Under the pieces are notes generated by a model that worked only from the letters and a program-made list of their open reading frames with translations, was not told where the DNA came from and ran no database searches. Position numbers and translations under genes: made by a program. A stretch of 64,000 nt of DNA from Pseudovibrio denitrificans JCM 12308 (GTDB lineage Bacteria; Pseudomonadota; Alphaproteobacteria; Rhizobiales; Stappiaceae), in assembly GCF_001310815.1 (NCBI RefSeq), contig NZ_BAZK01000001.1, positions 62,001-126,000 of the forward strand. The letters are read 5' to 3'. Shown here one piece after another: positions 25,234 through 41,388 of the stretch (positions within the stretch are counted from its first letter, which is position 1; every line of letters begins with the position of its first letter).

Positions 25234-25959
25234 ATGACCATTCATAGTGGTGGCCAGAACATCTGCGGCGTTTCAATCGGCGTTCTTTCTCTAGAGAGCT
25301 ATTTCCCGAAGCCTCCGGGGCACATCAAGAACCCCTCCAGCCTGCCATTTACGACGACCTATGAGATCCTTCATGGTTTGACCGTGCAGAAGCTGCTGGC
25401 TGATCCCTCTCCTGAGCTGCTGGAGCCGATTATCAGCGCGGCAAAGCGGCTGGAGGATCAGGGCGTGCACGCAATCACCGGATCCTGCGGGTTTCTGGCG
25501 ATCTTTCAAAAGGAGATTGCTGAGGCGGTTTCCATCCCTGTGTTTGTGTCATCTCTCATTCAGGTGCCACTCGCCTATCACATGACCAAGGCTCCTGTTG
25601 GCGTTATTACGGCCTCGGCATCTTCTTTAACGGACAAGCATCTGGAAGGTGTTGGTGCCTTTGATGTGCCGATTGTGGTGCAAGGGCTGGATGAGGCGCC
25701 GGAGTTCTCCTCTGTGATCCTGCGCGGCGAGCGCACGCAGATGGATCTGGGCAAAGTGACGGGCGAGCTGTTGGCTGCTGCTGAAAGCATGGTGGAGCGC
25801 TCGCCAGAGATTGGTGCGATCGTGCTGGAATGCACTGACCTGCCACCTTATGCGCATCAGCTGCAAGCCAAGGTCAACCGGCCTGTGTTTGACATCATCA
25901 CCCTAGCGAGCATGGTTCACGCTACATCCCACCGCATGGCTTTCCCCGGCTTCATCTAG
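25234..25959 (+). CDS. Aspartate/glutamate racemase-family protein
   Basis: 241 residues with an AAGGA site upstream. The two Cys motifs of the family are visible: ITGSCGFLAIF near residue 86 and VLECTDLPPYAHQ near residue 198. They act as the acid/base pair in PLP-independent amino-acid racemases. It is the last gene of the TRAP/DadA operon and could convert an L-acid to the D-form used by the oxidase, or be a hydantoin-racemase-like enzyme. Its last 8 bases overlap the end of the convergent giant gene. Confidence 0.75.
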   Translation: MTIHSGGQNICGVSIGVLSLESYFPKPPGHIKNPSSLPFTTTYEILHGLTVQKLLADPSPELLEPIISAAKRLEDQGVHAITGSCGFLAIFQKEIAEAVSIPVFVSSLIQVPLAYHMTKAPVGVITASASSLTDKHLEGVGAFDVPIVVQGLDEAPEFSSVILRGERTQMDLGKVTGELLAAAESMVERSPEIGAIVLECTDLPPYAHQLQAKVNRPVFDIITLASMVHATSHRMAFPGFI

Positions 25960-28114
25960 CCTCTTCCAACTGCCTTTCATAGGACGGGAGTGGCGGATCA
26001 ATATCATCGGTGCAGAGGTAGAGATCCTGCAGGTTGAGCAAGGGCATCGGATTTTCCGTCAGGTTGGACATGATGTTGAGCGCGAAGGTTAGTGTGGCGT
26101 TGTTGCAGGAGGGTTTGTGCGTCTCAGCCCAAGCTGTGATGGACTTGGCAAGGTTCTTGATGATGTTCCCCTTCGGCTTGCCTTTCGTGGTTATGGTGAT
26201 CGGGGTTGGCGGCAGAAGTGCAATTGGCAGATCAATCGGCTCTTCAGTCAGTCCCTCAGCCAGGTGATAGGCATAACCGATGTTGAGCTGGAGAGTAACA
26301 TCCCCGACGAACTCGCCTTTGAACAGCTTGCAAAACAGATTGTTCAGATGCTGTGTCAGGCTGCATTTGCTCGGCTCTCCCTTCGGTTCATCCAGCCATG
26401 CGATGTTAAGCGGCTGATAGCTGGAGAGTGTTGGGTGGAACGGGTTTTTGAAGGTGGCTGTCGGCGTTTTAAAGACAAAGCCCTCGTTGATCTTGCCAAA
26501 GATGTAGTTATTTCGGGTCATGTACATGGAGGCGATGGCATCCTGTCGGGCCAGTACCTGCATCCCCGGTAGGATCACCTGCCGGTCACTGATGGACTGC
26601 GCGATATCCTGCGTTAGGTACGTGATCTTCTTCTTTTTCTCCTGCGTGTAATAGTAGGTGTAGGTTTTCTTGCCCTTTTCGCAGGCATTTGAGGCCAGAT
26701 GGCTGGTCCACTCAGGAATTTCGACAGAGGGTTCTCCAGTGAGGCCTTTGAGATTGTTGCAGTCTTCTAAAATGAGTTTGACCACCCATCGATCTGCTGT
26801 GTCTTCATTGTTTGAGGTGTATGCCTGATTTTCCTCCAGAATGCTGAACTTGTAGCTCTCAGCCCCTTCCTTTGTTGCCGGGGCCGCCAGCATGCTCAGA
26901 TTTCCAGCAGCCGTGGCTGCTTTTATGATGTCCTCATTGATCTTGATGATCGCAGATAGGACACTGGCAGCATCTTCGATGGCCGCATCGTCCTGTCTTG
27001 CCGCGCTGATGACAGGCACGTGTTGGTCCAGAATGGCGGAGAGATTGCTTGCAACGGAAATGAACTGGGCGAGCTCTGCGAAGGCATCAAGGAAGCCTGC
27101 GAGTTCGTTTGCAGGTTTGTCTTTGATGTTGAACTGAATCTGGCCGTGGGCTTTGTCCTGTAAGTAGTGAAAGTTCAGGCCGTAAGTGTACTCATAATCC
27201 CATCTGGTGATTTTGCTCAGCTGCGTGGCCTTCTTATCAAAGGCTGGGCCAGCTTGGGAGACCATCCTCGGAGTTTCGGGGAAGCTGCGCAGCAAGATTG
27301 GCAGTTTGAAGGAGCCGAGAGACTTTTCCAGCACCGGCGTGTCTTCGGCTGTAATTGGCGACAACCAGCTGGACGCCTTATAGCCCTCGATGTTTTTGAC
27401 AGGACTGATCTGGTGTTCCAGAGCCGTGACCTTGTAGCAAAGATCCAGACAGAGGCACTCTGTGGTCTCTCCCAGTTTCTCAGAGGCTTCCAATAGGAAT
27501 GTGAGGGGTTGCTCTTCGCCCTGCTCAAGCTTCAGTTTTGGCGAGGTCAAGGAGATCAGGCTGGCGAGCGTCTTGCTGGTTGTAGAGCTTGCTTTTTCCT
27601 CAGCATGCGGCGGGCAGTTTTTGATGCTGTTGAGGTTTATGTTGCCGCAAAGCTGCGGTGTTTCCTCATTTCCTTGCAATGGGATGCTGGCGGTTACATC
27701 CGCACCAAAGGAGATGGCTGCTTGTGTGGTGTAGAGGTTGGAGAGCTCATTCAGTAGAGACTGGCGGAAGGTTTCCTGCGCTGAGGCCAGGCGGGTGCTC
27801 GCTCCGTCCTGATAGATCGGTGCGAGCATGTTAGCCGTGATCCCGGCAAGGCTTTCTTTCTGATCTGCCAGTTGCTCCATAAAGCCGGTGGGTTTCGGCG
27901 TTCCATTTTTTACTGCCTGAGACTGCAGATGATGATCGATGAACAGGATGGAAGATGAGTACTTTGGCGAGAGCAGACCGTCGAAGAAGTCGAAGTATTG
28001 CTTGAGCCACACATCCATTTCTACGTTGGAGAATGTGCTTTTGACTGGTGTGCCCGTGAACTTACCCGTTTGAGTCGAAGTCCTCAAGACTGGTGTACGG
28101 ATAGATGGAGGCAC
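25952..28114 (-). CDS. Giant LysM-associated protein, C-terminal piece (unknown function)
   Basis: A 720-residue open frame whose only early start is a GTG at 28114 without a ribosome-binding site, lying 53 bases inside the previous frame. Removing one G from the GGG at 28065-28067 would fuse the upstream frame ...TSLEDFDSNG directly to KFTGTPVKSTFSNVEMDVW. This is probably the C-terminal half of the preceding protein (about 1316 residues joined). The piece is mixed alpha/beta, acidic and polar, with no signal peptide, no membrane segment and no recognised motif. Function unknown. Confidence 0.6.
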   Translation of the reverse strand: MPPSIRTPVLRTSTQTGKFTGTPVKSTFSNVEMDVWLKQYFDFFDGLLSPKYSSSILFIDHHLQSQAVKNGTPKPTGFMEQLADQKESLAGITANMLAPIYQDGASTRLASAQETFRQSLLNELSNLYTTQAAISFGADVTASIPLQGNEETPQLCGNINLNSIKNCPPHAEEKASSTTSKTLASLISLTSPKLKLEQGEEQPLTFLLEASEKLGETTECLCLDLCYKVTALEHQISPVKNIEGYKASSWLSPITAEDTPVLEKSLGSFKLPILLRSFPETPRMVSQAGPAFDKKATQLSKITRWDYEYTYGLNFHYLQDKAHGQIQFNIKDKPANELAGFLDAFAELAQFISVASNLSAILDQHVPVISAARQDDAAIEDAASVLSAIIKINEDIIKAATAAGNLSMLAAPATKEGAESYKFSILEENQAYTSNNEDTADRWVVKLILEDCNNLKGLTGEPSVEIPEWTSHLASNACEKGKKTYTYYYTQEKKKKITYLTQDIAQSISDRQVILPGMQVLARQDAIASMYMTRNNYIFGKINEGFVFKTPTATFKNPFHPTLSSYQPLNIAWLDEPKGEPSKCSLTQHLNNLFCKLFKGEFVGDVTLQLNIGYAYHLAEGLTEEPIDLPIALLPPTPITITTKGKPKGNIIKNLAKSITAWAETHKPSCNNATLTFALNIMSNLTENPMPLLNLQDLYLCTDDIDPPLPSYERQLEEAR

Positions 28115-29903
28115 TGCGGGAGATCAGTGTGTTACTGACTGGCAGTGCCGCGTAGAGTTCAGGATGGCACTCATCAGTGATGCGGAACGAGATTGGATCA
28201 CCCTCCTGGCGCCCTACTCTGACTGCCCAAGTGGCGTTGGAAGCGAGGCCCGCAGATGGGGCATAGCGATTGATGCCGGACGCGACCATGATCTGGAAGT
28301 CTGGCCCCTGAATGGCTTTGGCGACGTTTCCCGCGAACTCTGCAAGGATATCTGGTTTGGGCTTCTTAGGCTCTTTGTCAGACCGTTTTGGCGCGGATAC
28401 ATTGGTTTTAATCGCGACTGTATTTGCTACTGAACGGGCCAGAGGATCTGCTGCATAGTCTCCAACCGCGATGCCATGGGTGCGTTTGAAGATGAGCTTT
28501 GTCACCAGCTCAAAGACCTGATCAGTACGGACATCCGAAAGCGCTGTTGTGACTGGAAGTTTCAGGGATGGAATGGTGAATTTTGGGTCTGTTTCGTTCC
28601 CGTCCGCAGCACTGTGTTTTTGAAGGAACTTTTGAATGTGCTGCCACCAGCCAATGAGCTGCTTCAGTTCGCCATCTGTCAGCGTATAGTTCTCGCTCAC
28701 CAGTGAGGTGTCGACCTCCACAGCAAACCCGTTGGGGTCGTCAAACTGAGTCAGCATATCTTCCACGATGACCAGAGCTGAACGTGCACGTTGCTGGGCA
28801 ATGGAAGGGTTCTGACCCTTTTGCGGAATGAAGGGGCTGGTATCGAAACTGAAAGAGACCATGAGCGTGAAGGTCTTTTCAGGATTTTTGCTCATGGCAA
28901 CAGTCCAACTAGCAGATGTGGAGGGCCATTGGGAGAGCGGGATGATCTGGTCTGTATACCCTTGCAGTGCGGGCTTGTTGCTGAGCTTTCCGGCTGGATC
29001 AGCGTAATCATCCAGCGAGGAAAGAATGGTGTTGCCGTAATAATCGTTCCAGCCGAGTTTGGTTTGCAGCAGTTTGCCGTTTGCAATGTAGGGATTGAGC
29101 GGCTTGTCCTTTCCCTTGTCTTTCACAAGACCGAGATAAGAAATTGCGCCATGATACTGCTCTGCATCGCCAGTTGATGCTTCCAGTACATATCTGACTT
29201 TGTTTTCATCCGGTGATGTGGACTTGCCGGAGGCACCGATGGGAAGCCCCATATTGCTCGATTTAAAGTCCTGATTTTCGGTCACCTGATAAGCCAGCAG
29301 GCTGTAATTGTTGAGAAGCAGAGCCTTGGCGTAGTCCGAGCCGGTGCCACCTGATGGGACCGGCTGCGGTTTGGCTCGCTTTGCGTTGAGGGCCTGAACA
29401 CCGGGATGTTCACCCGGCTGCACCGACAGTGGGCCCGCATGGGTGGTGAGGGTCTGACCTGCTACCAGAAGGTTCTCCTGTTCCGCATTACTGACCGCGA
29501 CCACAATCGGCTCTGTGCCGAAGTACTCTGCAATTTTCTTCAGGTCCGTCAGTTTGATCAGATCGTTGCTGAGGGTTTTCGCAGCAATGGTCAGTTCAAT
29601 GGCAGGTAATCGCAACGGAGTGCCTGCGGGCAGGTTTTCGTCTTTCAGGCCCGGGTTGATCTGCTTGAGTTGATCGACGGTCGTGCCAAAGCGCAGGGCA
29701 ATGCTGGCAAAGGAGGCTCCAGGCCTACTGGTGCCTTGTGGGACCATGTAAGTACCCTGCTCTATGAGGATTGTTTTGCCCTTGGCCAGCTCGATCTCAG
29801 TGCTATCCAACGACAGAGTGTTGGCGATGAGTGCGTTGAGGTTGGAGTGATAGAGCCGAGCGATGCTTTCCAGTGTATCGCCCTGTTGCACGGTATGCTC
29901 CAC
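28062..29903 (-). CDS. LysM-repeat protein of the giant cluster (unknown function)
   Basis: About 613 residues. The preferred start is the GTG at 29903 with AAAGGG six bases upstream; a TTG at 29906 is the alternative. It opens with a LysM repeat (EHTVQQGDTLESIARLYHSN), then a second, degenerate one (ASFASIALRFGTTVDQLKQINPG) and a third near residue 120 (DLKKIAEYFGTEP). Stacked LysM-like modules normally bind N-acetylglucosamine-containing glycans or act as scaffolding repeats. No signal peptide is seen, so a periplasmic role is not obvious. The end is out of frame with the next piece (see 25952-28114). Confidence 0.65.
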   Translation of the reverse strand: MEHTVQQGDTLESIARLYHSNLNALIANTLSLDSTEIELAKGKTILIEQGTYMVPQGTSRPGASFASIALRFGTTVDQLKQINPGLKDENLPAGTPLRLPAIELTIAAKTLSNDLIKLTDLKKIAEYFGTEPIVVAVSNAEQENLLVAGQTLTTHAGPLSVQPGEHPGVQALNAKRAKPQPVPSGGTGSDYAKALLLNNYSLLAYQVTENQDFKSSNMGLPIGASGKSTSPDENKVRYVLEASTGDAEQYHGAISYLGLVKDKGKDKPLNPYIANGKLLQTKLGWNDYYGNTILSSLDDYADPAGKLSNKPALQGYTDQIIPLSQWPSTSASWTVAMSKNPEKTFTLMVSFSFDTSPFIPQKGQNPSIAQQRARSALVIVEDMLTQFDDPNGFAVEVDTSLVSENYTLTDGELKQLIGWWQHIQKFLQKHSAADGNETDPKFTIPSLKLPVTTALSDVRTDQVFELVTKLIFKRTHGIAVGDYAADPLARSVANTVAIKTNVSAPKRSDKEPKKPKPDILAEFAGNVAKAIQGPDFQIMVASGINRYAPSAGLASNATWAVRVGRQEGDPISFRITDECHPELYAALPVSNTLISRSASIYPYTSLEDFDSNG

Positions 29904-29926
29904 CAACTGCCCTTTGGCCGAAGCTG

Positions 29927-30973
29927 TCAGTGAGGCTCAGAACTTGCCAATGGCTGTGCTGTTGCAAGGCCGTTGATATAGGGATGCAGGTGTTGCTGGT
30001 CCTCGTGAATGATCACAAGCGTTAGTGTGGCCTCACCCTTTTCGTTGAAGATGCTTGACGGAAGGCCTGCCTTTCCATCATCAGCGGTGTAGTAGAGGTA
30101 GAACCCACCCGAGTTGGTGATACCTGCTTCCCACAGCAGTTTCACAAGGTTCATCGGCGTGTTGAGCAGCGTTGGGCCTGTGGTTTGCATGCTCTCTTGG
30201 AGGAAAAGCTCGCCGCCCGGGTTTGTGACGGTAGAAAGGTTCGTCTGCGAGATGCCGAAAGTGACGTTGCTGCCGCCCTCTCCAACAAAATGGGTTCCAC
30301 TGCTTTGAGAGCCTGTGGTGCAGCCCAGGGTGATGGACGTAAAGCTGTGGTCATCAGGCAGCGATTGCAGCATACGCTCCAGCACTACAGTGCCGGATGA
30401 GCTGACACCGTTCAGTTCATAGGTTGTTTTCAGCGCATTGTCTGATGCCCCGTTAGCTTCATTGCCCGACTTCTTGTGCTGTTGAGGCAGTTTTTTGATG
30501 GAGAACTCGATGGTTGATGTCCAGCCGAAGTTCACCAGTGGTGTTTTGATTGTCTTACCAGTGGCCGCATCCTGAGCGGCCTGCTCGACGATCATGTGCG
30601 GTGGTAGCGCATCACCATCCTGCGCTCCCAGTGCTGTCAATGCTCCTGAGAGTGTCCAGAGGCGTAGGTACTGGGAGTTGGATTTCTGTGTGCTGGAGCT
30701 GGAAGGAACCGGGATTGGCTCTGCGCTCTGCCAATTGATGTAATGCGGGATTGGGAATGCGCTTGGCTGCTGATCAACGCTTGCAAGCAGTGAAAGTTGG
30801 CAAGGTCCAGCTGGCAGATACCCTTTTGCACCGCATTTGATGATCGCCTCAATGCGCTCGTAGTCTTTGCTGGGTTTCTCTTCATCCTTCGGCACTACCA
30901 CCGGATACTTCAGCGGGTTTGTGTCGTTGCCGAGTGTGATCCAATCGGCATTCTCAGGCTTGCCGAGCAGCAT
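29927..30973 (-). CDS. Giant-cluster protein piece (unknown function)
   Basis: A 348-residue frame starting at an ATG without a ribosome-binding site, inside the previous frame. The frame is open upstream of that ATG (...HPTPLTTSFS-MLLGKPENADW). Adding one C to the CCCC at 31003-31006 joins it to the preceding piece as ALSGQQIP-HPTPLTTSFSMLL. It is therefore probably internal to a protein of about 2590 residues starting at 37691. It ends at 29927 in SSEPH; a shift just before the stop could in principle also continue it into the LysM gene. No recognised domain. Confidence 0.55.
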   Translation of the reverse strand: MLLGKPENADWITLGNDTNPLKYPVVVPKDEEKPSKDYERIEAIIKCGAKGYLPAGPCQLSLLASVDQQPSAFPIPHYINWQSAEPIPVPSSSSTQKSNSQYLRLWTLSGALTALGAQDGDALPPHMIVEQAAQDAATGKTIKTPLVNFGWTSTIEFSIKKLPQQHKKSGNEANGASDNALKTTYELNGVSSSGTVVLERMLQSLPDDHSFTSITLGCTTGSQSSGTHFVGEGGSNVTFGISQTNLSTVTNPGGELFLQESMQTTGPTLLNTPMNLVKLLWEAGITNSGGFYLYYTADDGKAGLPSSIFNEKGEATLTLVIIHEDQQHLHPYINGLATAQPLASSEPH

Positions 30974-33660
30974 GGAGAAAGAGGTGGTGAGCGGTGTTGG
31001 ATGGGGATCTGCTGTCCTGAAAGCGCGAACAGGCCAGCTTCTGCAGGCAGTGTGAGTTTTCCGGCCTCATCTTTTTCAACCCACATGCCCTCTTTCAGCG
31101 GCGTGATGCCTTCTTTTAGCGATGCGATGTTTTTTGTGGGCAGACGCATGCCGTGGAAGTAATAGCGCGATGCCATCCCAGACAGATGGGTTATGCCGCC
31201 TGTACGCTGCACTTCTTTGATGAGTTCGCCTACACAGAACTGCGGCAGATGCGCAATGCTGAGGCTGCTTGTAGAGCCGCTGGTAGGCACGACGAACAGA
31301 TCTGTGATGGTTCCATTTGCTGGCAGAGCGAGTGCTTCGGCTTTTGTCTCAAACTTCTGAGCGACTGAAGAGAGCGTATCGGTGTCGCCTGTCTTATGTG
31401 TGAACTCAGGCAGTTGCAATGTTGTGCCGGCAACCAGCAGTTTTGGTTGGCTGGGGATTGAGCTGTTGGTGCTCAGCTCGTCCAGTGAAACACCCAAAGC
31501 CTTGGCCACGGAACAGAAGGTTTCACTGCCTGAGGTGATGTGGGTAGTTTTGGTGCCATCAGATGCTGTGTAAGTGATCTTCGCACCATTGATCAGCAGA
31601 CCTGCGACATCTTTGTTCTTGCAGATGAGATCAGCGACGTTGACCACTGCGTTGAGCTGGTTCTTTTCAGCAAGCTGCTTGAGGGTTTTGCCCGCAGGCA
31701 CCACCAATGATGCGGTTGGGATTGTGAGCTCAACGTTGCTTGTCAGCGGGTGAGTTCCGTTGGTCTTGAAGAGATCCGCCAGCGTGTAACCGGTTCCCCC
31801 TTTGCCTTTCACCCAAGCCACGATGCCATCTGGCGTTTCGCCTGAAACAAGCAGATAGTTGAAGTCGCGCAAACCATCCAGAAGACTTTGCATCATCTGC
31901 TTCATGATCAGCATGAAGTAGTTCTGATAAATGTATGATGCAATTGATATTTGCGCGTTTTCTGGTGTAGTTTCAGATGGATCTTTCCCGCTTTCTTTTT
32001 CCACCTGAACCGCTAGCTGGTTAAAGTAATTTGTTAAGTCCTGCAGATAGTTGGAGCTGATTGTGTTGAACTCGGCAAAGCTATAGGAAAGTGTGGTTTT
32101 ATCGCCTACTTTCAGCGCTAAGCTGAGGTCCGGTACCATTGGGAAGTAAGTGGCCTGTGCCTCTCCAGTCCTTGCTGGCACCGCAATATCCAGCTGGAAC
32201 TGTTGCTGAAGGAACTTCGAGATATCGCTTTCGGTGAGCGCATCAGGTGAGGTTTCCAGAGTGCTCAGAGTGTCCAGGATGGAGTTGATCTCAACCGCGC
32301 TGGTGGGGTGACTATCGACTTCTTTCGCCGTCACCTCTTCATCACCCATCGTGGCTGCAATCAGCCAACGTGTGGTCATCTTTGCCAGAGCTTCAAAGGC
32401 AGTGTCCGGGTGCGTACCAGAGGCTTTCTCGAAGTGCTCGGTGTCCTGTGGTTTTGCTGGTGCTGGCGCTTCAATGAACAGATTGGCCACATAACACGGC
32501 AGTTGTGGTGGACGGCCCTGCGCTACTGGCGACCAGTTTTCATCTTTGGCCAGCGTCAAGCCGTAGCCCAGATGGATCTCCAAACGGTTCTTTGATGGAT
32601 CTGAGGCCGCTCTCAGATTGGCCCAGTTGAACTCTATGGGCTCCGCTTCATAGCCAGCTGGTGACATTGGGAAACGACTGTAAAGAGCCAGACGCTCTGC
32701 CAGAGGTAACGCTAGCAGACCTTCGTGACTTGCTGGATGATCCAGCCACGGTGCATTTTTCGGGTTCTGGAGCGTGCCTAATGTGAAAGTGGTGTGCACA
32801 TGGGCGGAGAAGCTGAAGCTTACTTTGATGGTGAACAGACCAAGATCGATGCTTGCAGAGGCGCTGACGTCCACTTTGGCCGCGATGGTGATCGGGATTG
32901 GTTCATAGGACGCAAGCTTAATCTGAGCGCTGACCTCGATCCTGATGTTCACAGAAGCTTTGATGATGGCGAAATCAATAGAGCCGTAGAGTTTGCCGAT
33001 AATGCCAAAGGTACCGGTGAGCGAGAAGAAGTATTCCTCCTGCAAGGACAAGGCGTTGCTGCTGTCGGTGTGTTTGTCATGATACGCATTCCATTTGGCC
33101 AGAATGCCTTGCAGGATACCGAAAGCCGTGAGACTGAAACCTGCTTTCAAAATGCCCATTTCAAAGGACTTCCCGAGCCCCAGCTGTGCTCCGAAACCGA
33201 AAACCAGATTGGGATTAAAAAATCCATTTTTCGATACAGGTAGACCCTTCACTGAAGCAGCAGGTAACTTGCCGAAGTAGAACCCACCACCGCCCTTGAC
33301 CGGGATGCCCGGAGGCACGATGGCCTCAACGGAAAAAGACTGCGAGAAATTGTTGTTCCATGGAAAGCCCACATCGATCTGGAAGTCTCCGTTGGTGTAG
33401 ACCTCAATGCCAAACGTGGGCAGTGTGATGGTAACGGCCCCCACATCAATGCGGCGCATAATCTCCGGCAGTTGGATGGAGGCGGAGAACTTGCCGAGCC
33501 CTTCTGAGACTTTCTTGTAGATCACCTGAAAGTCGAGGCCGGAGAATACTTTGGCCGCTTTGCCGTTGCACGCGATGTGTAGAGCGTAGAGACTGGGGTC
33601 GGTCAGAACAACCTGCAGCGTGAACGCATACTGGCTCCACCCTTCTCCAACTCTCCCCAA
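30910..33660 (-). CDS. Giant-cluster protein, central beta-rich piece with LysM-like end
   Basis: A 916-residue frame. Residues about 1-330 are beta-rich and repetitive with Gly-rich turns (IEVYTNGDFQIDVGFPWNN, VKGGGGFYFGKLP, FGFGAQLGLGKSFEMGILKAG). From memory this resembles the bacterial/fungal DUF6603 family; unverified. The last third holds degenerate LysM-like repeats (SETFCSVAKALGVSLDEL; TLSSVAQKFETKAEAL). The TTG start lies inside the previous frame. One G added at the GGG at 33640-33642 would join ELEK to GWSQYAFTLQVVLTD. The final 40 residues are Ser/Arg/His-rich, as expected for an out-of-frame tail. Confidence 0.6.
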   Translation of the reverse strand: MGRVGEGWSQYAFTLQVVLTDPSLYALHIACNGKAAKVFSGLDFQVIYKKVSEGLGKFSASIQLPEIMRRIDVGAVTITLPTFGIEVYTNGDFQIDVGFPWNNNFSQSFSVEAIVPPGIPVKGGGGFYFGKLPAASVKGLPVSKNGFFNPNLVFGFGAQLGLGKSFEMGILKAGFSLTAFGILQGILAKWNAYHDKHTDSSNALSLQEEYFFSLTGTFGIIGKLYGSIDFAIIKASVNIRIEVSAQIKLASYEPIPITIAAKVDVSASASIDLGLFTIKVSFSFSAHVHTTFTLGTLQNPKNAPWLDHPASHEGLLALPLAERLALYSRFPMSPAGYEAEPIEFNWANLRAASDPSKNRLEIHLGYGLTLAKDENWSPVAQGRPPQLPCYVANLFIEAPAPAKPQDTEHFEKASGTHPDTAFEALAKMTTRWLIAATMGDEEVTAKEVDSHPTSAVEINSILDTLSTLETSPDALTESDISKFLQQQFQLDIAVPARTGEAQATYFPMVPDLSLALKVGDKTTLSYSFAEFNTISSNYLQDLTNYFNQLAVQVEKESGKDPSETTPENAQISIASYIYQNYFMLIMKQMMQSLLDGLRDFNYLLVSGETPDGIVAWVKGKGGTGYTLADLFKTNGTHPLTSNVELTIPTASLVVPAGKTLKQLAEKNQLNAVVNVADLICKNKDVAGLLINGAKITYTASDGTKTTHITSGSETFCSVAKALGVSLDELSTNSSIPSQPKLLVAGTTLQLPEFTHKTGDTDTLSSVAQKFETKAEALALPANGTITDLFVVPTSGSTSSLSIAHLPQFCVGELIKEVQRTGGITHLSGMASRYYFHGMRLPTKNIASLKEGITPLKEGMWVEKDEAGKLTLPAEAGLFALSGQQIPIQHRSPPLSPCCSASLRMPIGSHSATTQTR

Positions 33661-36600
33661 TGCTCCTGTCCAAGCTCTTTACTGGAGTCGATACGCAAAA
33701 CACCAAAATCTGTGGCAAACAGCCAGTTGATGTTTCCATCGAAGCCAATACTCGGGATTTTGTCTGCGGATGGCTCATGAAGGCAGCCAAGAATATCAAC
33801 GGCTTGCTGCACCGTATTGACTTGCTGCAGCCCTTTGACATTCACATGCTGACCACCTGCCAGGAGCCTCAGATCCAGATACTTGTTTCCTGCTCCACCG
33901 GGGCTTGGGGTTGTTGAGGGTTTATCGGCGCGCCACTTCGGTTTCGCACTTTTTTCCAAACTGTGAACCGGCCAAAGGAAATCACCATCCAACTCGACCC
34001 AGACACCAGAATTCCTATTATAACTCAGAGAGATACCTCTAACTGAGGCAAATACCAGATCGATAGGTCCAATATCAATCTTGAAGCACACTGTTTCGTT
34101 CTTGAGATCCCAGGTGAGTTCAAGGTCGGAGAGCTTCACGTCATTGAGCAGGTCGAAAGGTGCTGCAAGACCAAATCTGGCGCCTGTCATCCATTCGACA
34201 AAGGTTTCAACCATGCCCCCAAGAGTGGTTGCCTGCGTGAACTTTATCGTAGCTATCTGTTTCTCATCGACCTCAGCACTCAAAGCGCCCCATTGAATGC
34301 CAAAGGAGGACTTCTTTTTTCCATATTGGTAGAAGACTGTCAGATCGATTTTGTTCCAGACAATATCAGCGGTCAGCAAAGCATATTGGTTGTTGTTGGA
34401 AGCCTTCTCAAAGCGAGGAAGTGAATGAGCTGGTTCCAGAAAAACGATCTCATCCTGTTCGTTCAGCACGGGAATGCCGGCGTTATTGATGGGTAGCAGC
34501 AGTTCGTTGCCACCAGAGTTGCCGATCTTTGCGGTGAAGGTGACGTTTTCAGGCAGCCAGCTGACTTTTTTCTTGCCTTTATTTGAAAAGTTGACTGTGC
34601 CGCCAAACTCGTAGCTGGAAGCGGTTTTTCCGCTACCCGTTGAGAACGTAATATTCAGGCCTGTAACATCCAGATCGAACTTGTCGGTTGCCCAGCCACT
34701 GCCGAGATAGGCTGCAATGATCTGGCTGATCTTTATGGGCGTGTCGCCCTGCTCTCCTGTAAACGTCCAGAGATGGTTTTGTGTGTCGAAGGTTGCTGAG
34801 ACATTCACAGGCACCGCCTTTACGCGCGGTAGCCCCTCAAACAGCATTGTGGAGGCTTTTATGGTGCCAGTGGTGTTGTTTCCGATGCCTTTGACATCGA
34901 TGTAGATGTCCTTCAGCTCAAAGTTTGCCGGGGCCAGTGAGATCGTCCAACCTTCCAGATCCACCCCAGCCTGTACCGAGTATGTGCTGTTGTTTTTGCT
35001 CTGTCCTGGGGTGTACTCCAGAGACAGGTTCGCGATATCAGCGTCCACATTGAGGTGATAGCCTTTTGGCAACAGCGCATCGACAAGGTCTTCGACCGGT
35101 AAGCTTGGTCCTTCCGGGTTCAGCGTTGCGGTGACTGTGGTTTGCGGATAGGTGGCGGAAACATCAAGCGTTGGTGGGTTATCACTCGTGCCGATCACGG
35201 CTTGTGTCGAGGCGACCCAACTGACCTTGCGACTTCCTGTCGGCTGCTGTGCGGTTACATCAAAGCTCAGATCCTTGATGCTTAGTCCTCCAAACAGGTC
35301 CCATTCCTTGTTATCTTTCAGAGAGATCTGGAAACTCTCGATGGTCTTCTTGGTTGAATCGTAGTTGAAGCGCAGTCCGTCGATGTTTAGCTGGTTCAGA
35401 TCAGCGAGTTCTGACGGGATTGAGTTGGCGAAATTCATTCCACCTATGAGACTGAACACCGCATTCAGCGATGGCGTGGCTTCGTTGGCGAACGCCCCCT
35501 GCACCACCATTTTGTTGCTGGCAGAGCTTGGGAAGTTCATCTGGAACGGAACCAGCGTTTCACCAAGTTCTACCGAGGTTTGCACGCCACCAGTCAGTCT
35601 TGCGCCATTGCTGGAGAACTCTGCAAACAGGCCGGTGTTCTCAAGTACAAACCATTCCACACCGGGCAGCGAAAGCTTTTGCAGGTCAACTTCCAAGCGG
35701 ACCTTGTAGTTTTGGCCAGCCTTCTTCGTGGCACGGCCTACGCTGGAGACGGTGAGCGTGACCGTGAGTTCAGTGCCTAGAAAATCGGAGGTTTTGCCCC
35801 TAACGATGATCTGGCTGAGCTTCTTTGCCTGATAGACAGACTTGATGGAGACCGGATCCTTTGCCGAGCCTATATTGAGAGCGCCGCCCCCTAAGATGCT
35901 CGTGAGGAACTGATGAAACGGGCCATCTTTCACAATATTCGGGATCAATGATAGCTTGCCGTCCTTCGTAGCCTCCTGAAGCGTTTTCTGCAGTTTGCTC
36001 AAATCGGAGAAGATGCTGCCTGCCATTTTGACAAGGGTAAATCTGGCGGCAAGAAAGCCGAGTGTTTGTAGGAGTTTATCGTTTTGCGGGGCGGTGTAGT
36101 ACTGTTTGAGGCCGTCAAAGTACTCGAAGTACTCGCTTTTTCCGGATCTGAACTGTGTGGTGATCTCAGCAATCGATTGGGCGAGCTCGTTTGGCGGCAT
36201 GGAGGCTTTGAAGCCCTCCTGAAACGCTGAAAGTCCCAAAGCAATCTGGTTCTTGGAAAGATCGAGCAGCGCTGCGGTTGTTGGTGATGTGCTGCTGGCT
36301 GCCTTTCCGCTGCCATTTCCAAATGTGCTGGGATACGGGTTTACTGTGAAATCAGTCAGCTTGAAGAATGACTTGCCCAGATTTACCGCCAGGTTGGAGG
36401 CCTTGGTGCCTTGCAGAACGCCGGGCAATGTGGCTACGGCATACAGATGGTTGATCGCTTCCGGCGGCAAGCCTTGCAGTGTGGTGACGACAGTTGAGCC
36501 GGGCTTCAGTTTGCTCAGGAACGCTTTACCAGCCACGCCAGATAGATCCTTGTTCAAGTAGATCCCAGTGTCTGAGCCTGAGGTGTTTCGGAAGAGTTGC

Positions 36601-37691
36601 TGCGCTTTGCAGTAGGCATTCACATTCTTTGTCAGCTCATCTAGATAGTTGGCAGTGCTCTGATTAGACGCGGGTTTTTCCGGGAAATAGTGCCCCAGTG
36701 TTTCCCATGTGGAGTCGGAGAGATCGTCCAGAATAGCGATGACAACTGTCTTTTTTGAGAAGGCCTTTTGCTTTTGCAGCAACGTGGCAGCAGCGATCAG
36801 CTCAAAGGCGATCCCTTCTGCACTGCCTACCAGAGAGGTTTTGTCTCTTGAGGAGCTGGGCAAGCTGGCAACGGGAAAAAACTCAATGTCGTTTTGCGCT
36901 GACTTTCCAATGGCATTTGTGATGTTTTGAGCAGCACTTAGCGCCTTTTTATTGACCTTCGGGATTTTCTGAAGCGCTGTCCAGTTGGGTTTGGCGGACA
37001 GATCCTGTTTGAAGCTGCGATAGGCGAACTGATTGCCTTGCAGGACGAGCTGGTCATCCAGGTTTATGGAGCGTTTCAGGCCTGGAAGGATGATTTTTGA
37101 GTTGCTTGTGCTGTTTTCGGCTGTCCAGAGATAGGGTTGCAGCAGGACGAAGTAATCGCACTTTACGGCTATTGCGATGCTTGTGTTGTCGATGTTGGGA
37201 ATGTCACCACCGCCGCACAGGCAGAGAGGCATTTTGCCGGTCAGGCCGCGCACCTGGCGATGGGTGATCTCGCCAACGGTTGTTTCCTCATAAGCGAAGA
37301 ACGTTATTGTGATGCCGTTTAATGTGTATGGGGCGCGGGTTGCCGGGTCAAAACCGGGGAGCAGTTCGGCAAGTTTTTGCAGCAGTGTTTTCTGGGCGCT
37401 GTTGTAGATCAGCTCGACATCTATCTGAAATCCAAGGGAAATCATTGAGCGGAGTATGTTGATTGTGTTTGCGACACTGCCGGACCGCTCATCTTGCCAA
37501 GCAAAATATCGCAGCTTCTTGCCCTTCAGAACTCTTGTGAGTTTAGCGATGATACTGCTGGAGAGTGAGGTGTTCAGGTCATCGGCAGCTGACATAAACT
37601 GCTGGATCAGGCTGGTGAGATCGGACGACAGGGCTTCGTCCTGCGGCAGGACGGCGGGCTCGAAGGGTTCGATTGGGCTGTGCTCGTTCAT
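33603..37691 (-). CDS. Giant-cluster protein, N-terminal 1362-residue piece (unknown function)
   Basis: This is the real start of the giant gene: ATG at 37691 with AGGA just upstream, 32 bases after the 229-residue protein. Residues about 1-450 look globular alpha/beta (KLRYFAWQDERSGSVANTINI; IVVAI-type core strands such as KTVVIAILDDL). From about 560 to the end it is a long run of amphipathic beta strands alternating polar and hydrophobic residues, with repeated LDVTGLNITF / VDLEGWTISLAPANFELKDI-like units. This suggests an elongated beta structure. There is no signal peptide or membrane helix. Function unknown; the last about 13 residues appear out of frame. Confidence 0.65.
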   Translation of the reverse strand: MNEHSPIEPFEPAVLPQDEALSSDLTSLIQQFMSAADDLNTSLSSSIIAKLTRVLKGKKLRYFAWQDERSGSVANTINILRSMISLGFQIDVELIYNSAQKTLLQKLAELLPGFDPATRAPYTLNGITITFFAYEETTVGEITHRQVRGLTGKMPLCLCGGGDIPNIDNTSIAIAVKCDYFVLLQPYLWTAENSTSNSKIILPGLKRSINLDDQLVLQGNQFAYRSFKQDLSAKPNWTALQKIPKVNKKALSAAQNITNAIGKSAQNDIEFFPVASLPSSSRDKTSLVGSAEGIAFELIAAATLLQKQKAFSKKTVVIAILDDLSDSTWETLGHYFPEKPASNQSTANYLDELTKNVNAYCKAQQLFRNTSGSDTGIYLNKDLSGVAGKAFLSKLKPGSTVVTTLQGLPPEAINHLYAVATLPGVLQGTKASNLAVNLGKSFFKLTDFTVNPYPSTFGNGSGKAASSTSPTTAALLDLSKNQIALGLSAFQEGFKASMPPNELAQSIAEITTQFRSGKSEYFEYFDGLKQYYTAPQNDKLLQTLGFLAARFTLVKMAGSIFSDLSKLQKTLQEATKDGKLSLIPNIVKDGPFHQFLTSILGGGALNIGSAKDPVSIKSVYQAKKLSQIIVRGKTSDFLGTELTVTLTVSSVGRATKKAGQNYKVRLEVDLQKLSLPGVEWFVLENTGLFAEFSSNGARLTGGVQTSVELGETLVPFQMNFPSSASNKMVVQGAFANEATPSLNAVFSLIGGMNFANSIPSELADLNQLNIDGLRFNYDSTKKTIESFQISLKDNKEWDLFGGLSIKDLSFDVTAQQPTGSRKVSWVASTQAVIGTSDNPPTLDVSATYPQTTVTATLNPEGPSLPVEDLVDALLPKGYHLNVDADIANLSLEYTPGQSKNNSTYSVQAGVDLEGWTISLAPANFELKDIYIDVKGIGNNTTGTIKASTMLFEGLPRVKAVPVNVSATFDTQNHLWTFTGEQGDTPIKISQIIAAYLGSGWATDKFDLDVTGLNITFSTGSGKTASSYEFGGTVNFSNKGKKKVSWLPENVTFTAKIGNSGGNELLLPINNAGIPVLNEQDEIVFLEPAHSLPRFEKASNNNQYALLTADIVWNKIDLTVFYQYGKKKSSFGIQWGALSAEVDEKQIATIKFTQATTLGGMVETFVEWMTGARFGLAAPFDLLNDVKLSDLELTWDLKNETVCFKIDIGPIDLVFASVRGISLSYNRNSGVWVELDGDFLWPVHSLEKSAKPKWRADKPSTTPSPGGAGNKYLDLRLLAGGQHVNVKGLQQVNTVQQAVDILGCLHEPSADKIPSIGFDGNINWLFATDFGVLRIDSSKELGQEHWGELEKGGASMRSRCRLF

Positions 37692-37723: not shown

Positions 37724-38413
37724 CTATTTCTTTGCGGGTGTTTTGCAGTTTTCGGGCGGCTCGTTGTTGTAGACCGCGTACCAGGCCAGACCTGTGGTCT
37801 CATCAGAGCTTTTGCTGTTCTCATCAGGCTCAGAGAACAGGTAGAAGGACGTGGCACCGCTTGGTGGGATCTTGGCGAGGCCGAGGAACTTCAGGGCGAT
37901 CTCGTTGAGAACAAACATATATTGCTTCTTCGGATCGCTCTCATGATTGTTGGGGTTTTCCGTATAGAGCAGCTGGATTGGGCCGTAGGACATGGACAGA
38001 ACGTTCTGCAGGCTGATGAGAGATGCACTATTGGAAGAGCCCGGCATATGGATGGCGCTCTGGGATTTGTAGGTGTCGCCAGTGGAGTCTGGTGACCAAG
38101 CGAGCAGGAAATCTGCGGAAAGGCCCAGTTTGCCTGCAAGGTCGCCTGCGGTACCTAGGCTGACTTCGAACTGCAAAGCGTTCCAGTCTTTTGAGAGGCC
38201 TTGCTGGTTTGCGTTGGTGATCACGTCCAGATAGCCAAGAGAGGCGGGCGTTTTGTCTGAACTGGTTGAGCTGACAAAACCTTTCAACTGCAAAGGCATA
38301 GTATCGACCAAGCTGCTGCTGCGCGGAGTGCTGTTCTTGGTATCGAAGGTCAGCTGATCACTGACCCAGATGATCTTTTGGCTTTCATAGGGATTGGTTT
38401 GAGAGAAGCTCAT
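37724..38413 (-). CDS. 229-residue protein of the giant cluster (unknown function)
   Basis: It starts at the ATG at 38413, overlapping the stop of the 992-residue gene (ATGA), so translation is probably coupled. It begins MSFSQTNPYESQKIIWVSDQL and is mixed beta with Gly/Ser turns (LTFDTKN, FEVSLGTAGDLAGKLGLS). No signal peptide, membrane segment or recognised motif. Its position between two very large genes suggests an adaptor or chaperone-sized partner, but that is only inference from size and order. Confidence 0.65.
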   Translation of the reverse strand: MSFSQTNPYESQKIIWVSDQLTFDTKNSTPRSSSLVDTMPLQLKGFVSSTSSDKTPASLGYLDVITNANQQGLSKDWNALQFEVSLGTAGDLAGKLGLSADFLLAWSPDSTGDTYKSQSAIHMPGSSNSASLISLQNVLSMSYGPIQLLYTENPNNHESDPKKQYMFVLNEIALKFLGLAKIPPSGATSFYLFSEPDENSKSSDETTGLAWYAVYNNEPPENCKTPAKK

Positions 38414-41388
38414 TTGAAGGGATAGATTGCCAAAGCCAAGGCCTGTCTGGTTGATATCTGCTCCTTCTCGGCTCCATAGGAGAACAGATCAACCTGCTGC
38501 TTTTTATCGGCTTTCAGGATTGCAAAGTCTAGAAAGCCAGTAAATACGAAGCGGATAAGTGGTTCGGTTTGGGCTTTCTGTTCCTTGTCGTGACCAGAAA
38601 TGGTGTTCATTCTGGCGGAGGTAAACTCGGTTTGCTGGAGGATGTTGTTGTTGACTTTAAAGCGGTAGGGCTGCGGGGCGGCCATGGTGTAGGATGGGTG
38701 GCCGTTGTTGTCCTGATAGCTGGCTTTCATGATCAGGGATTTGTACTGGCTGCCCTTGGGCTTTGCTTTGCCTGCGGGGATAACCGGCTGCGAGCTGATG
38801 ACTTCACTGCCGAAGACCTTGTTTAGGGAGAGCTGAGCGAAGGAGGAGAACTTCTTGATGGCAGAGTTTTCAAAAAGCACCTTCAGCGAGAGCAGGATGA
38901 AATCGTAGGTGCGGTTTGATGAGGGAACAACTGGCTCCGGGCTTGCCGCCCCCTTTGGCACCAAGAGGTCGGGGTCCTCGTAGTAAATCAAGCCAAACAC
39001 TGAGCTTTGCTTCTTTATTGCAATCTTCTCACCATCTGTCCCAGTCTTGATCTGGTTGATGCGGATGGCGAGGTGGTGGGCATAAAATTTTGCCGGATCA
39101 CGCACGCCAGCGACGATACCAGCGAGTTGCTCAGGTGGTGATTTGATACGCGCGCGTAGCATAAGCACGCCGGTCCAGTTGGGATCGGCGGCCAGTTGAT
39201 TGAAGTCTTCGAAGTACTCTGTCGCGGGATTATCTTGTGCGGCCTTGAAGTAGTCCTGCAACCAGGAGGAGACGTTGACCAGCTGGGCCGGATTTGGTGT
39301 GGCGTCTCGGTTTGTTGTTGGAGCGGCGAAGGTTTCCTTTTGGGTCCATTTTTGTGGGTTGGAGATCAGGTTGTCTTTGGGATCACCCTTTGGATCGTAG
39401 AGTGGACCTCGAATACCTTTAATGATCAATATGTTGGCGTAGTCGCCGAAGTCAGGAGAGTTGCCGACATCGGCTTCGATCAGCCAATCTTCGATATTGA
39501 GAGTATTGAGGAATGTTGTCCCCGCCTCTCCCAGCTCTGACGGATTTGCCGCAACCAGAAAAAGCTGATTGGTTTGAAAGGCTTCTATCAGCTTTGGGCT
39601 GAGTTCCTTGAATGCGAACTCAGAACTTGTCGGCGTTTTGATCTGCGCAAGTTTGACTTCTTTCCAGTGGTTTGCGTCTGTTGGTGATTGCAGCGTTGCT
39701 ATGACGCCGAGCGGGGTCGTTAAGGTGGCTTCAGCTTCTGTGTCTTGCACCTCAGATATGTTGGTGTTGGATTGACCGCTGGTAAGTGCTGCGATCACCT
39801 TTCGCCGTGTCGGGGCAATGATGCTCTTTTCGAAGAGCGCCACATCGCATTGGGAGTACGTGGGATCGCCCTCATCCGTACCGCTATACGGGAACATGGG
39901 GAACGCTAGCGTATCATCCGGAGGCAAGGTGTAGGCAGGGCTAACAGTGCCCAGCAAGCTTTTGTTTTCCTGCCAGATTTCATCATCGTACCCATGCAGG
40001 GCACTGCCGTGGGGCTGGGCGACATATGTGATTGGATCCCCTATACTCTCCACAGCAGACCCGGCTGGAAAGACCTCCACATAGGATGTCTTGTAGCTTC
40101 CTTTCAGAGGTGCCCCTTTGGGGGCTGGGCGGCCAGTTGGGGAGGATTTAGGCAAGGGGAAGACGGGGGCATAAGCGGGCTGGTTTGGGATGAAACGCAG
40201 GCGTGCGCCAGATGCGAGATCTTCATCATTCCCCGGCACCTCCAGAAACTCGGTTCCGCCGAGGCCGCACATGATGCGGGCCTTGGTTGTTCCCTGTCCG
40301 GCTGGGGCGCAGACGAGGAAATCTCCCTGCGGACTGGCGATAAAGCTATGAAGTGTCGAGGGTTCTTCATAGCTGGGTGTGAGGATTAGGCCTGCCGGAT
40401 TGCCTGTGCTTTCAAAGCTATCCCCGGTGATGGCTGTCAGGGCAACAGTGGCGCCATAGGTGGTTCGGTAGAAGCTGTTGAGGGTTGGGCCTTGACCCGT
40501 TTCAGCCTCCGGGCGGAAGTAGAAAGCGCAGCGGTTGGGATCGCTGCGGTTATGGGTGGGATAGTTGTTCAACGCATCGGTGACGTCCACCACCAGCCGC
40601 ATAGGGAGCGGTTCGCGCTCGCCGTTGTCGCCAGTTCCCAAGGCAAAGCGCTGGCCATTGAGGCCGGTTTTGGTGTTGGGATCGCTTGCAACCCATTGAA
40701 AACCCAAATTCCATTGATCGTGCAGCGCGTCCCGCTCAAAATCAGCATCAAAGACGATGGCCCCGCGATCTGGGCCAGAACAGCGGATGTCGGCCTTGCT
40801 TACGGACCCTGTGTCGGGGCTCAGATATCCCCCCAGTTGAATGGCGGCTTCTGAGAGCTGCAAATTCTCTTCATCCTCGGAGACCTTGATATAGGCGGCG
40901 GAGTAGAACTCGATGGTGAGGTTTGGGGCGAGCGGGTAAGACAGGCTGCTTGTTGTCTCGGTACCAGCGGTGTTGATGGAGAAAAACGCTGGGCGTTGGT
41001 GCTGGTAGCCTTCGGGAATGGGAAGCGGTGTAGAGGCTCTGGGTAGCCACATGAAACCGCGTGGGATGCGCATAGCTTCAAGGTATTCATGCAAACCGGA
41101 AACCAATGTTTGCTGCTGATCTTTTTTATGATCGCAGTCCAATGGATCCGGGCAGTAGATGAATGAACCTGAATAAGCTTTGTTGGTGAGTGCGTCTTTT
41201 AGCGAGATGCGTTTGGGAAGTTTTACTTTGCGCAAAGCTATCTTACTGACGACAAAAGCGAAACCACCTGCATTATCGCCCGTATTTGGCGCCAGATAGA
41301 GGCCTTTGCAGGCCTGTTGTTCAAAGTCCATTGCGCAACTCCCAAAAGCCTTGTCCATTACGGTGTTAAGGACAGAAATCGGGAGCAT
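38410..41388 (-). CDS. 992-residue first protein of the giant cluster (unknown function)
   Basis: First gene of the minus-strand block. The annotated ATG is at 41388; an ATG at 41331 (MDFEQQACKGLYLAP) has a better-placed GGGAG seven bases upstream and may be the true start (973 residues). The sequence is beta-rich and polar with many Pro/Gly turns. Segments such as LVVDVTDALNNYPTHN and LNGQRFALGTGDNG recall jelly-roll or carbohydrate-binding modules, but none is identified. No signal peptide or membrane helix. It is translationally coupled to the 229-residue gene that follows. Confidence 0.65.
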   Translation of the reverse strand: MLPISVLNTVMDKAFGSCAMDFEQQACKGLYLAPNTGDNAGGFAFVVSKIALRKVKLPKRISLKDALTNKAYSGSFIYCPDPLDCDHKKDQQQTLVSGLHEYLEAMRIPRGFMWLPRASTPLPIPEGYQHQRPAFFSINTAGTETTSSLSYPLAPNLTIEFYSAAYIKVSEDEENLQLSEAAIQLGGYLSPDTGSVSKADIRCSGPDRGAIVFDADFERDALHDQWNLGFQWVASDPNTKTGLNGQRFALGTGDNGEREPLPMRLVVDVTDALNNYPTHNRSDPNRCAFYFRPEAETGQGPTLNSFYRTTYGATVALTAITGDSFESTGNPAGLILTPSYEEPSTLHSFIASPQGDFLVCAPAGQGTTKARIMCGLGGTEFLEVPGNDEDLASGARLRFIPNQPAYAPVFPLPKSSPTGRPAPKGAPLKGSYKTSYVEVFPAGSAVESIGDPITYVAQPHGSALHGYDDEIWQENKSLLGTVSPAYTLPPDDTLAFPMFPYSGTDEGDPTYSQCDVALFEKSIIAPTRRKVIAALTSGQSNTNISEVQDTEAEATLTTPLGVIATLQSPTDANHWKEVKLAQIKTPTSSEFAFKELSPKLIEAFQTNQLFLVAANPSELGEAGTTFLNTLNIEDWLIEADVGNSPDFGDYANILIIKGIRGPLYDPKGDPKDNLISNPQKWTQKETFAAPTTNRDATPNPAQLVNVSSWLQDYFKAAQDNPATEYFEDFNQLAADPNWTGVLMLRARIKSPPEQLAGIVAGVRDPAKFYAHHLAIRINQIKTGTDGEKIAIKKQSSVFGLIYYEDPDLLVPKGAASPEPVVPSSNRTYDFILLSLKVLFENSAIKKFSSFAQLSLNKVFGSEVISSQPVIPAGKAKPKGSQYKSLIMKASYQDNNGHPSYTMAAPQPYRFKVNNNILQQTEFTSARMNTISGHDKEQKAQTEPLIRFVFTGFLDFAILKADKKQQVDLFSYGAEKEQISTRQALALAIYPFK

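What the first reader, a model, noticed from the sequence alone, without database searches (positions are those of the whole stretch)
25952..41388. 15.4-kb block of giant beta-rich, LysM-containing proteins with no recognised function
Seen: seven same-strand frames with tight spacing (ATGA overlap at 38410-38413, 32-base gap at 37691), no signal peptides or membrane helices, long amphipathic beta-strand runs, and at least five LysM-like repeats (in 30910-33660 and 28062-29903). They occur in no pathway I can name. Inference: one expression unit encoding a very large, probably elongated assembly, possibly a glycan-binding or scaffold structure. One piece recalls DUF6603 proteins, from memory only.
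Basis: partly seen in the sequence, partly recalled or inferred. Interest (0 to 1): 0.85.

Follow-up and report, generated by a model that had tools for sequence, protein, structure and literature searches.

The report
Two-gene giant system with enzyme slot
What looked like seven genes is a broken copy of two neighbouring genes, one for a protein of about 1,200 residues and one for a giant of about 3,900, that travel together across very different bacteria next to different enzymes; the pair matches nothing described in the libraries searched and may carry an enzyme used against other organisms.

Summary
The seven frames are real, but they are pieces of two genes. In the 8 other Pseudovibrio genomes found with the locus, frames 38410-41388 and 37724-38413 are one gene (AB, about 1,200 aa) and the other five are one gene (C, about 3,920-3,980 codons). 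The window copy carries five frame-breaking short deletions, but such deletions are as dense outside the block, so they look like noise or strain-wide wear, not local decay. Relatives show purifying selection (dN/dS about 0.1).

AB and C form an undescribed, mobile two-gene system. Separate searches with AB and with C hit the same 8 of 72,556 plasmids (Azospirillum, Mycetohabitans, Nostoc, Paenibacillus, Tistrella, Lysinibacillus, Embleya). C has an amphipathic beta core and LysM repeats; neither has a family over cut-off beyond LysM. Beside or fused to C lies a changing enzyme: metallo-beta-lactamase-fold, EEP nuclease-like, or, in Pseudovibrio, an N-terminal domain that recurs in a 26,327-residue Streptomyces protein encoded among type VII secretion genes.

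Best reading: a giant carrier with an exchangeable enzyme for conflict or host interaction (0.4). DUF6603 is at most a remote relative.

The parts
37724..41331 (-). Gene AB (about 1,200 aa in intact relatives), here split into frames 38410-41388 (992 aa, probable true start at 41331) and 37724-38413 (229 aa)
   Evidence: Single open frame of 1196-1235 codons (stop to stop) in 8 of 8 other Pseudovibrio genomes with the locus; no Pfam, NCBIfam or PHROG match of the two frames
25952..37691 (-). Gene C (open frame of 3923-3979 codons in relatives), here split into frames 33603-37691, 30910-33660, 29927-30973, 28062-29906, 25952-28114
   Evidence: Single ORF in 8 of 8 other Pseudovibrio genomes with the locus; dN/dS 0.088-0.119 in the 11 of 21 pairs that could be computed
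35892..37691 (-). N-terminal domain of C (residues 1-600), candidate enzyme module; shared with Azospirillum B510 C, Mycetohabitans RBRH_RS15290 and a giant Streptomyces protein
   Evidence: reading as a glycosyltransferase-B-like fold is by eye only
32587..33998 (-). Conserved core of C (profile A2; motif TNGDFxIDxGFPxNxxFxRSF...GxGGFYFG), across a frame break
   Evidence: matches at G000:C1:94587-95627 and 95693-95998, that is window minus 62000; amphipathic strand signal in the relative
29604..29720 (-). LysM motif (best Pfam stretch, residues 63-101 of frame 28062-29906)
   Evidence: Pfam LysM E 5.6e-16 for the frame
31327..31380 (-). weak LysM-like motif (residues 761-778 of frame 30910-33660), below Pfam cut-off
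   Evidence: E 0.029, 14.8 bits

Best explanation
AB and C are the two structural proteins of an undescribed, horizontally moving system. C builds a very large, partly amphipathic-beta assembly with LysM glycan-binding motifs, AB is its constant partner, and an enzyme (fused to the N terminus of C in Pseudovibrio, or encoded beside AB and C elsewhere) is carried as cargo. The most likely use is conflict or host interaction: the complex leaves the cell by a route not encoded beside it, holds on to a glycan surface by LysM, and brings the enzyme to another organism. Shown: the two-gene structure, joint occurrence, selection, change of the adjacent enzyme between lineages, and intact catalytic motifs in the MBL- and EEP-type enzymes examined. 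Inferred: that AB and C form one complex, that the enzyme is cargo, that the complex leaves the cell, and its target.
For: AB and C occur together: an AB query and two core queries each hit the same 8 of 72,556 plasmid records; both are in the same 9 of 16 Pseudovibrio genomes; 17 of 17 loci taken for trees, chosen because they hold the core, also hold AB; in one relative (G037) AB and the core are one ORF. The AB and core trees share their well supported groups. The adjacent enzyme changes: MBL-fold in G020, G829, Tistrella, G482, G595 and Embleya (the last by motif only); EEP-like in G032, A. lipoferum, Nostoc and G188; the shared N-terminal domain in Pseudovibrio, Azospirillum B510 and Mycetohabitans. 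H-x-D-x-D-H, PHHG and GDAT are kept in 8 of 8 MBL-type proteins examined (the two of G595 were not), and GD[FW]N and SDH in 4 of 4 EEP-type. The N-terminal domain recurs in a 26,327-residue Streptomyces protein whose gene lies between genes annotated AAWKG family and type VII secretion system-associated (tblastn E 4e-6; profile E 3.9e-19 among 23 sequences, best of 20 shuffles 0.41, the score coming mainly from two stretches of about 60 residues). dN/dS about 0.1.
Against: No secretion, lysis or immunity gene was noticed among the ORFs flanking AB and C in Pseudovibrio (no dedicated search was made). The enzyme type follows the tree with few changes (5 changes over 5 groups, least possible 4), so it is not hypervariable as in classical polymorphic toxins. 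No enzyme was recognised beside AB and C in Lysinibacillus and G037 (ORFs scanned) or L040 (one ORF scanned); the neighbours of G025 were not scanned. Of 7 EEP/MBL proteins scanned, 2 pass Pfam's cut-offs, 4 are below and 1 (Tistrella) has no Pfam match. The Mycetohabitans version of the N-terminal domain finds only itself among plasmids. No fold could be predicted. No PDB relative for AB or core and none better than E 0.17 for the N-terminal domain.
Confidence: 0.4

Rival explanations
1. Glycan-binding scaffold or surface fibre: C is a long beta structure that binds peptidoglycan or chitin by LysM, and the neighbouring enzymes act on the bound material.
For: LysM in C of several lineages, with several copies in G188 C; amphipathic strand signal; companion proteins with LamG (Nostoc) or a sub-threshold FN3 match (Tistrella).
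Against: No signal peptide evident in C or AB (hydropathy of one relative); the MBL-fold and EEP families are, from general knowledge, phosphoester hydrolases rather than glycan enzymes; the N-terminal domain recurs in a protein encoded among type VII secretion genes.
Confidence: 0.2
2. Intracellular defence against phages or plasmids: the giant proteins sense the invader and the exchangeable nuclease-like enzyme is the effector.
For: One G020 MBL protein matches PADLOC LmuA (E 2.5e-14) and RTasMBL (4.3e-12), the Tistrella one weakly (RTasMBL 2.4e-5); Tistrella MBL weakly matches an anti-phage MBL model (19.4 bits, cut-off 220); the A. lipoferum locus lies next to a type III-B CRISPR operon; carried on plasmids, in Lysinibacillus near an integrase.
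Against: AB and C match no PADLOC model; LysM is odd for a cytosolic sensor; the EEP protein of G188 begins like a secreted protein (by eye); MBL similarity may only reflect a large fold family.
Confidence: 0.15
3. A lipid- or polymer-conducting groove: the alternating strands form a long hollow or grooved beta structure of the AsmA/TamB or bridge-like lipid transfer type (recalled families), and the enzymes modify the load.
For: Period-2 hydrophobic pattern over about 1,000 residues.
Against: No membrane anchor or signal evident; no such family in the Pfam scans; sporadic mobile distribution is unlike a housekeeping lipid carrier.
Confidence: 0.1
4. Decaying or artefactual locus without function.
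For: The window copy is broken at several places.
Against: Short deletions are as dense outside the block (0.35 per kb, intergenic sequence included) as inside (0.32); 8 of 8 other Pseudovibrio copies are open throughout; dN/dS about 0.1.
Confidence: 0.03

Closest known systems
DUF6603 proteins (PF20248)
   Same: Also giant (open frames of 1565-3518 codons in 8 of 398 genomes); one neighbourhood (L107) has an MBL-like small ORF upstream (by eye); an 89-column stretch resembles the end of the C core (hhalign 59%, E 9.3e-5).
   Different: No match of the PF20248 model to the pieces scanned here; among the ORFs listed in 4 DUF6603 neighbourhoods no AB, core, LysM or N-terminal-domain model matched.
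Polymorphic toxin systems (Zhang et al. 2012, PMC3482391; passages seen)
   Same: Very large carrier proteins with exchangeable enzyme modules; Hint-like companion genes in Tistrella, G829 and G020 (Pfam Hint below cut-off); one module shared with a protein encoded among type VII secretion genes.
   Different: Enzyme is N-terminal or a separate gene, not a C-terminal tip; no immunity gene recognised; no known trafficking domain; the enzyme changes rarely.
Tc toxins and extracellular contractile injection systems (recalled)
   Same: Giant multi-gene assemblies without signal peptides that carry enzymes; LysM occurs in eCIS-associated toxins (PMC11297309, passages). The LysM stretch of frame 28062-29906 also weakly matches Pfam Phage_tail_X (18.6 bits, cut-off 22) and a PHROG named baseplate hub (E 1.8e-4).
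   Different: Apart from that LysM stretch, no sheath, tube, baseplate, RHS/YD or TcA-type family matched the window frames.
Lamassu LmuA and RT-associated MBL effectors
   Same: MBL-fold enzyme beside a large partner; PADLOC matches for the G020 enzyme.
   Different: AB and C match no PADLOC model.

Membership tests
DUF6603 (PF20248) | match to the Pfam model over its cut-off | tested here: not met
   no match in own genome or in the Pfam scans of window frames and distant relatives; the model does work in 8 of 398 genomes
DUF6603 (PF20248) | remote profile similarity | tested here: inconclusive
   hhalign 59% / E 9.3e-5 over 89 columns against A2, 10% against A5; AB 0.1%
Polymorphic toxin | exchangeable toxin or enzyme domain on a conserved carrier | tested here: inconclusive
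   three enzyme types in the neighbourhood of AB and C, but few changes on the tree
Polymorphic toxin | adjacent immunity gene | tested here: inconclusive
   none noticed; in the window and L013 the flanking genes are metabolic; no dedicated search, and unknown immunity families would be missed
Polymorphic toxin | known export route or trafficking domain | tested here: not met
   no such domain in the window frames by Pfam, NCBIfam, PHROGs
Tc toxin / eCIS | homology to TcA/TcB/TcC, sheath, tube or baseplate proteins | tested here: not met
   no family over cut-off beyond LysM; only the LysM stretch weakly matches Phage_tail_X and a baseplate-hub PHROG
LysM protein | LysM over Pfam cut-off | tested here: met
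   58.7 bits in frame 28062-29906, cut-off 20.9
Known anti-phage defence system | PADLOC model match of the core components | tested here: not met
   0 families for an intact AB and an intact C
Any family | three-dimensional fold | not testable with these tools

The most novel reading that the evidence does not exclude
AB and C are a new class of two-component giant delivery particle, spread by horizontal transfer through Pseudomonadota, Actinomycetota, Cyanobacteriota and Bacillota, in which a protein of about 3,900 residues with a hollow amphipathic beta core and LysM anchors carries an exchangeable enzyme (MBL-fold, EEP-type, or the Pseudovibrio N-terminal domain) to a target organism, independent of known secretion and injection systems.
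Probability: 0.25. Interest if true: 0.92.

Novelty: categorically new. Interest (0 to 1): 0.7.

Why it matters
A conserved pair of giant proteins that recurs in four bacterial phyla, travels with changing hydrolase-type enzymes and has no family over cut-off beyond LysM points to an unrecognised molecular system. If it is a carrier for enzymes, it would be a new delivery principle in bacteria several of which live with marine animals, fungi or plants. It is directly testable in culturable Pseudovibrio strains that have an intact copy.

Tried and rejected
Local decay: rejected, since short deletions against the closest relative are as frequent outside the block (17 in the other 48.6 kb) as inside (5 in 15.4 kb), and relatives are intact and under selection.

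Programmed frameshifting at the junctions: rejected, since 8 of 8 other copies are open through them.

AB and C core as duplicates of one family: hhalign found nothing (probability 0.1-0.2%).

Phage origin: no PHROG family beyond matches at the LysM stretches and chance-level ones; no match of a core query in 50,697 phage records; one IMG/VR contig (L040) holds AB and the core, beside a recombinase-like ORF (by eye).

Tie to the flanking metabolic genes: partly rejected. The racemase-like gene at 88-100% identity is in 6 of 16 Pseudovibrio genomes, not in G005, G008 or G014, which carry AB and C. The flanks of G003, G005 and G008 differ from the window's, but G003 and G005 keep window genes from 48.7 kb on (G005 several, up to 60.9 kb) on one side, so the site is partly shared.

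Fold recognition by sequence against the PDB: nothing for core or AB; for the N-terminal domain only matches of E 0.17 and worse; none for one EEP and one MBL protein.

Print: DUF6603 in 0 papers; no paper seen in the listings of searches that describes the pair. Passages of PMC3806328, PMC4811931, PMC3482391, PMC11297309 and PMC11261895 were seen by word search only; none was read whole. Subscription papers are mostly not held.

Rows dropped: of 8 DUF6603 loci 6 are in A9; L103 had been read on the wrong strand and L099 matched with the same score and range as L098. Left out of the trees: G025 (short AB) and the Tistrella-like G482, G595 and G685. In G595 AB was not identified (an antisense ORF hid it in the listing).
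Full report
WHAT IS IN THE WINDOW. The window is Pseudovibrio: its closest named relatives are Pseudovibrio records and it lies at G000:C1:62001-126000 of a 6.05-Mb draft. The seven minus-strand frames are present as described. A search with frame 30910-33660 against 61 genomes (own plus 60 relatives) found 13 with a match, the own one included; in the 8 others of the genus it lies in one open frame of 3923-3979 codons. I call the two genes AB and C. The window frames break because of five short deletions relative to G009 (90.8% identical over 15.6 kb). Across the aligned window there are 22 such deletions, 5 in the block (0.32 per kb) and 17 outside (0.35 per kb, intergenic sequence included), against 5 short insertions. 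They are not concentrated in homopolymers. The breaks are therefore not special to this locus; sequencing noise is likely but not proven. In intact relatives dN/dS is 0.075-0.122 for AB (10 of 21 pairs) and 0.088-0.119 for C (11 of 21 pairs); the other pairs are saturated, and several of those counted have dS above 1.

ANATOMY. The window frames have no Pfam, NCBIfam or PHROG family over cut-off except LysM (weak matches at the LysM stretch include Phage_tail_X and a baseplate-hub PHROG). An intact AB and C have no PADLOC family, and profiles of AB and of the core find no PDB sequence. In an intact Pseudovibrio C (L013, 3942 aa) residues 1-600 align with the N termini of Azospirillum sp. B510 C and Mycetohabitans RBRH_RS15290 (23% and 28% identity); residues 640-1700 carry a strong alternating hydrophobic pattern (18.0% of windows, shuffles 7.0%, z 6.7) and contain the core shared by the 14 rows of A2; LysM motifs follow at about 2060-2150 and 2670 (weak with a home-made model; the window frame for the latter has clear Pfam LysM). 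AB shows no such pattern and no profile similarity to the core. No signal peptide or membrane helix is evident (hydropathy only).

A MOBILE TWO-GENE SYSTEM. The core query hits 8 of 72,556 plasmid records: Azospirillum sp. B510, A. lipoferum, Mycetohabitans rhizoxinica, Embleya, Nostoc carneum, Paenibacillus sp. 37, Tistrella mobilis and Lysinibacillus fusiformis; a second core query and an AB query hit exactly the same 8. A core query has no match in 50,697 phage records. One IMG/VR contig carries both (L040). Sampling: family 13 of 87 genomes (9 of 16 Pseudovibrio), class 4 of 385, phylum 3 of 398, own genome included in each. In Pseudovibrio AB and C are in the same 9 of 16 genomes. C is split into two ORFs in Mycetohabitans, Paenibacillus, Tistrella and G829 and, by position, in L040; AB is fused to the core in G037. 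Trees of 17 rows each (core: bootstrap and SH-aLRT; AB: quick, SH-aLRT only) agree on the supported groups: Tistrella with G829, Embleya with G020, these four together; Paenibacillus with L040; the Pseudovibrio rows. Embleya (Actinomycetota) groups with G020 (same family as Pseudovibrio) with 97/94 in the core tree and 100 in the AB tree, and the two Azospirillum species carry very different versions, so transfer between distant hosts is the simplest reading. Several deep branches are unsupported, and A. lipoferum, G037 and Lysinibacillus are very long.

THE ENZYME BESIDE C. An EEP-type protein lies between AB and C in G032, A. lipoferum and Nostoc, and before AB, with a signal-like start, in G188. 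One or two MBL-fold proteins lie between AB and C in Tistrella, G829, G020, Embleya and G482, and before C in G595. By Pfam only G032 EEP (35.1 bits, cut-off 24.5) and one G020 MBL (23.1, cut-off 22.7) of 7 proteins scanned pass; four are below the cut-off; Tistrella's has no Pfam match and is assigned through similarity to G020's (E 3.2e-9), those of G829, G482 and G595 through Tistrella's and G020's, Embleya's by motif. GD[FW]N and SDH are kept in 4 of 4 EEP-type and H-x-D-x-D-H, GDAT and PHHG in 8 of 8 MBL-type proteins examined. Pseudovibrio, Azospirillum B510 and Mycetohabitans have the N-terminal domain instead. Paenibacillus has a NARROW LEAF 1 protease relative upstream of AB (Pfam Nal1_C 31.7 bits, cut-off 26.1; PDB E 1.4e-5). 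No enzyme was recognised in Lysinibacillus or G037; in L040 one small ORF that looks L,D-transpeptidase-like by eye has no meaningful Pfam match; G025's neighbours were not scanned. On the core tree MBL is one group (100/100), the N-terminal domain one group (59/95), EEP scattered (3 changes): the enzyme changes, but seldom.

WHAT THE PSEUDOVIBRIO DOMAIN IS. Against the plasmid collection the Azospirillum version hits only itself and one Streptomyces plasmid (E 4e-6); the Mycetohabitans version hits only itself. The Streptomyces match lies in a CDS for 26,327 residues (266539-345522), between genes annotated AAWKG family and type VII secretion system-associated. The domain profile A3 hits that protein at E 3.9e-19 among 23 sequences, with the best of 20 shuffled ones at 0.41; the score comes mainly from profile columns 391-455 and 503-562. 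To my eye the N-terminal helix-strand start and the LPxVLEGxxxxNLxxxLGxPFF stretch look like a GT-B glycosyltransferase, and a stretch before it in the Streptomyces protein like an ADP-ribosyltransferase; no database supports either, so both are leads only.

HOW IT MOST LIKELY WORKS. A two-part giant assembly with glycan-binding LysM motifs that carries a changing enzyme fits conflict or host interaction best (0.4). Export is the weakest step: nothing noticed beside the genes in Pseudovibrio encodes it. A scaffold or surface function (0.2), an intracellular defence system (0.15) and a lipid- or polymer-conducting groove (0.1) remain open; details are in the rivals.

COMPARISON WITH KNOWN FAMILIES. 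The family itself is found in 8 of 398 genomes as open frames of 1565-3518 codons. A profile of six of them aligns with the end of the C core over 89 columns (59%, E 9.3e-5), only 10% with the longer A5, and 0.1% with AB. Among the ORFs listed in 4 DUF6603 neighbourhoods no AB, core, LysM or N-terminal-domain model matched. It may be a remote cousin, not the family. Polymorphic toxins, Tc toxins and contractile injection systems are similar in idea, but their defining parts were not found. 'Categorically new' refers to the gene system, which matches no described system in the libraries and papers searched; its mechanism is not shown.

Noticed in passing
L094-L096 (NZ_CP108391.1 266539-345522): A single annotated Streptomyces plasmid CDS for 26,327 residues, 'hypothetical protein', near type VII secretion-associated genes; one segment is homologous to the N-terminal domain of Pseudovibrio C.
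   Followed up: partly
window 1-64000: Short deletions against the closest relative outnumber short insertions 22 to 5 across the window, so frame breaks elsewhere in this assembly should be read with care.
   Followed up: yes
L106-L109: DUF6603 genes sit in their own clusters; by eye L108 and L109 share similar downstream ORFs (about 680-700, 320-345 and at least 300 aa), and L107 has an MBL-like small ORF upstream.
   Followed up: partly
L034 4453-8430, L036 4810-7971, L024 1557-6506, L038 2489-8497, L059 2005-3303: Companion proteins, some with LamG or FN3-like repeats, near AB; those of Nostoc, Tistrella, G020 and G188 match each other in their C-terminal parts and the Embleya one looks alike by eye.
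   Followed up: partly
L039 25349-32798: The A. lipoferum copy lies next to a type III-B (Cmr) CRISPR operon and has transposase genes on both sides.
   Followed up: no
L032 5024-5956 and L058 1752-2690: Two proteins of about 310 aa near the Azospirillum B510 and G188 loci look like glycoside hydrolases by eye; Pfam finds nothing.
   Followed up: no
window 25952-25959: The 3' end of C overlaps by 8 bases the end of a convergent gene (25234-25959, NF005679 over cut-off, racemase-like by weaker matches).
   Followed up: no
Pseudovibrio literature: PMC4811931 (passage) reports Rhs proteins of Pseudovibrio with structural similarity to Tc toxins near orphan vgrG genes; whether they matter for AB and C was not examined.
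   Followed up: no
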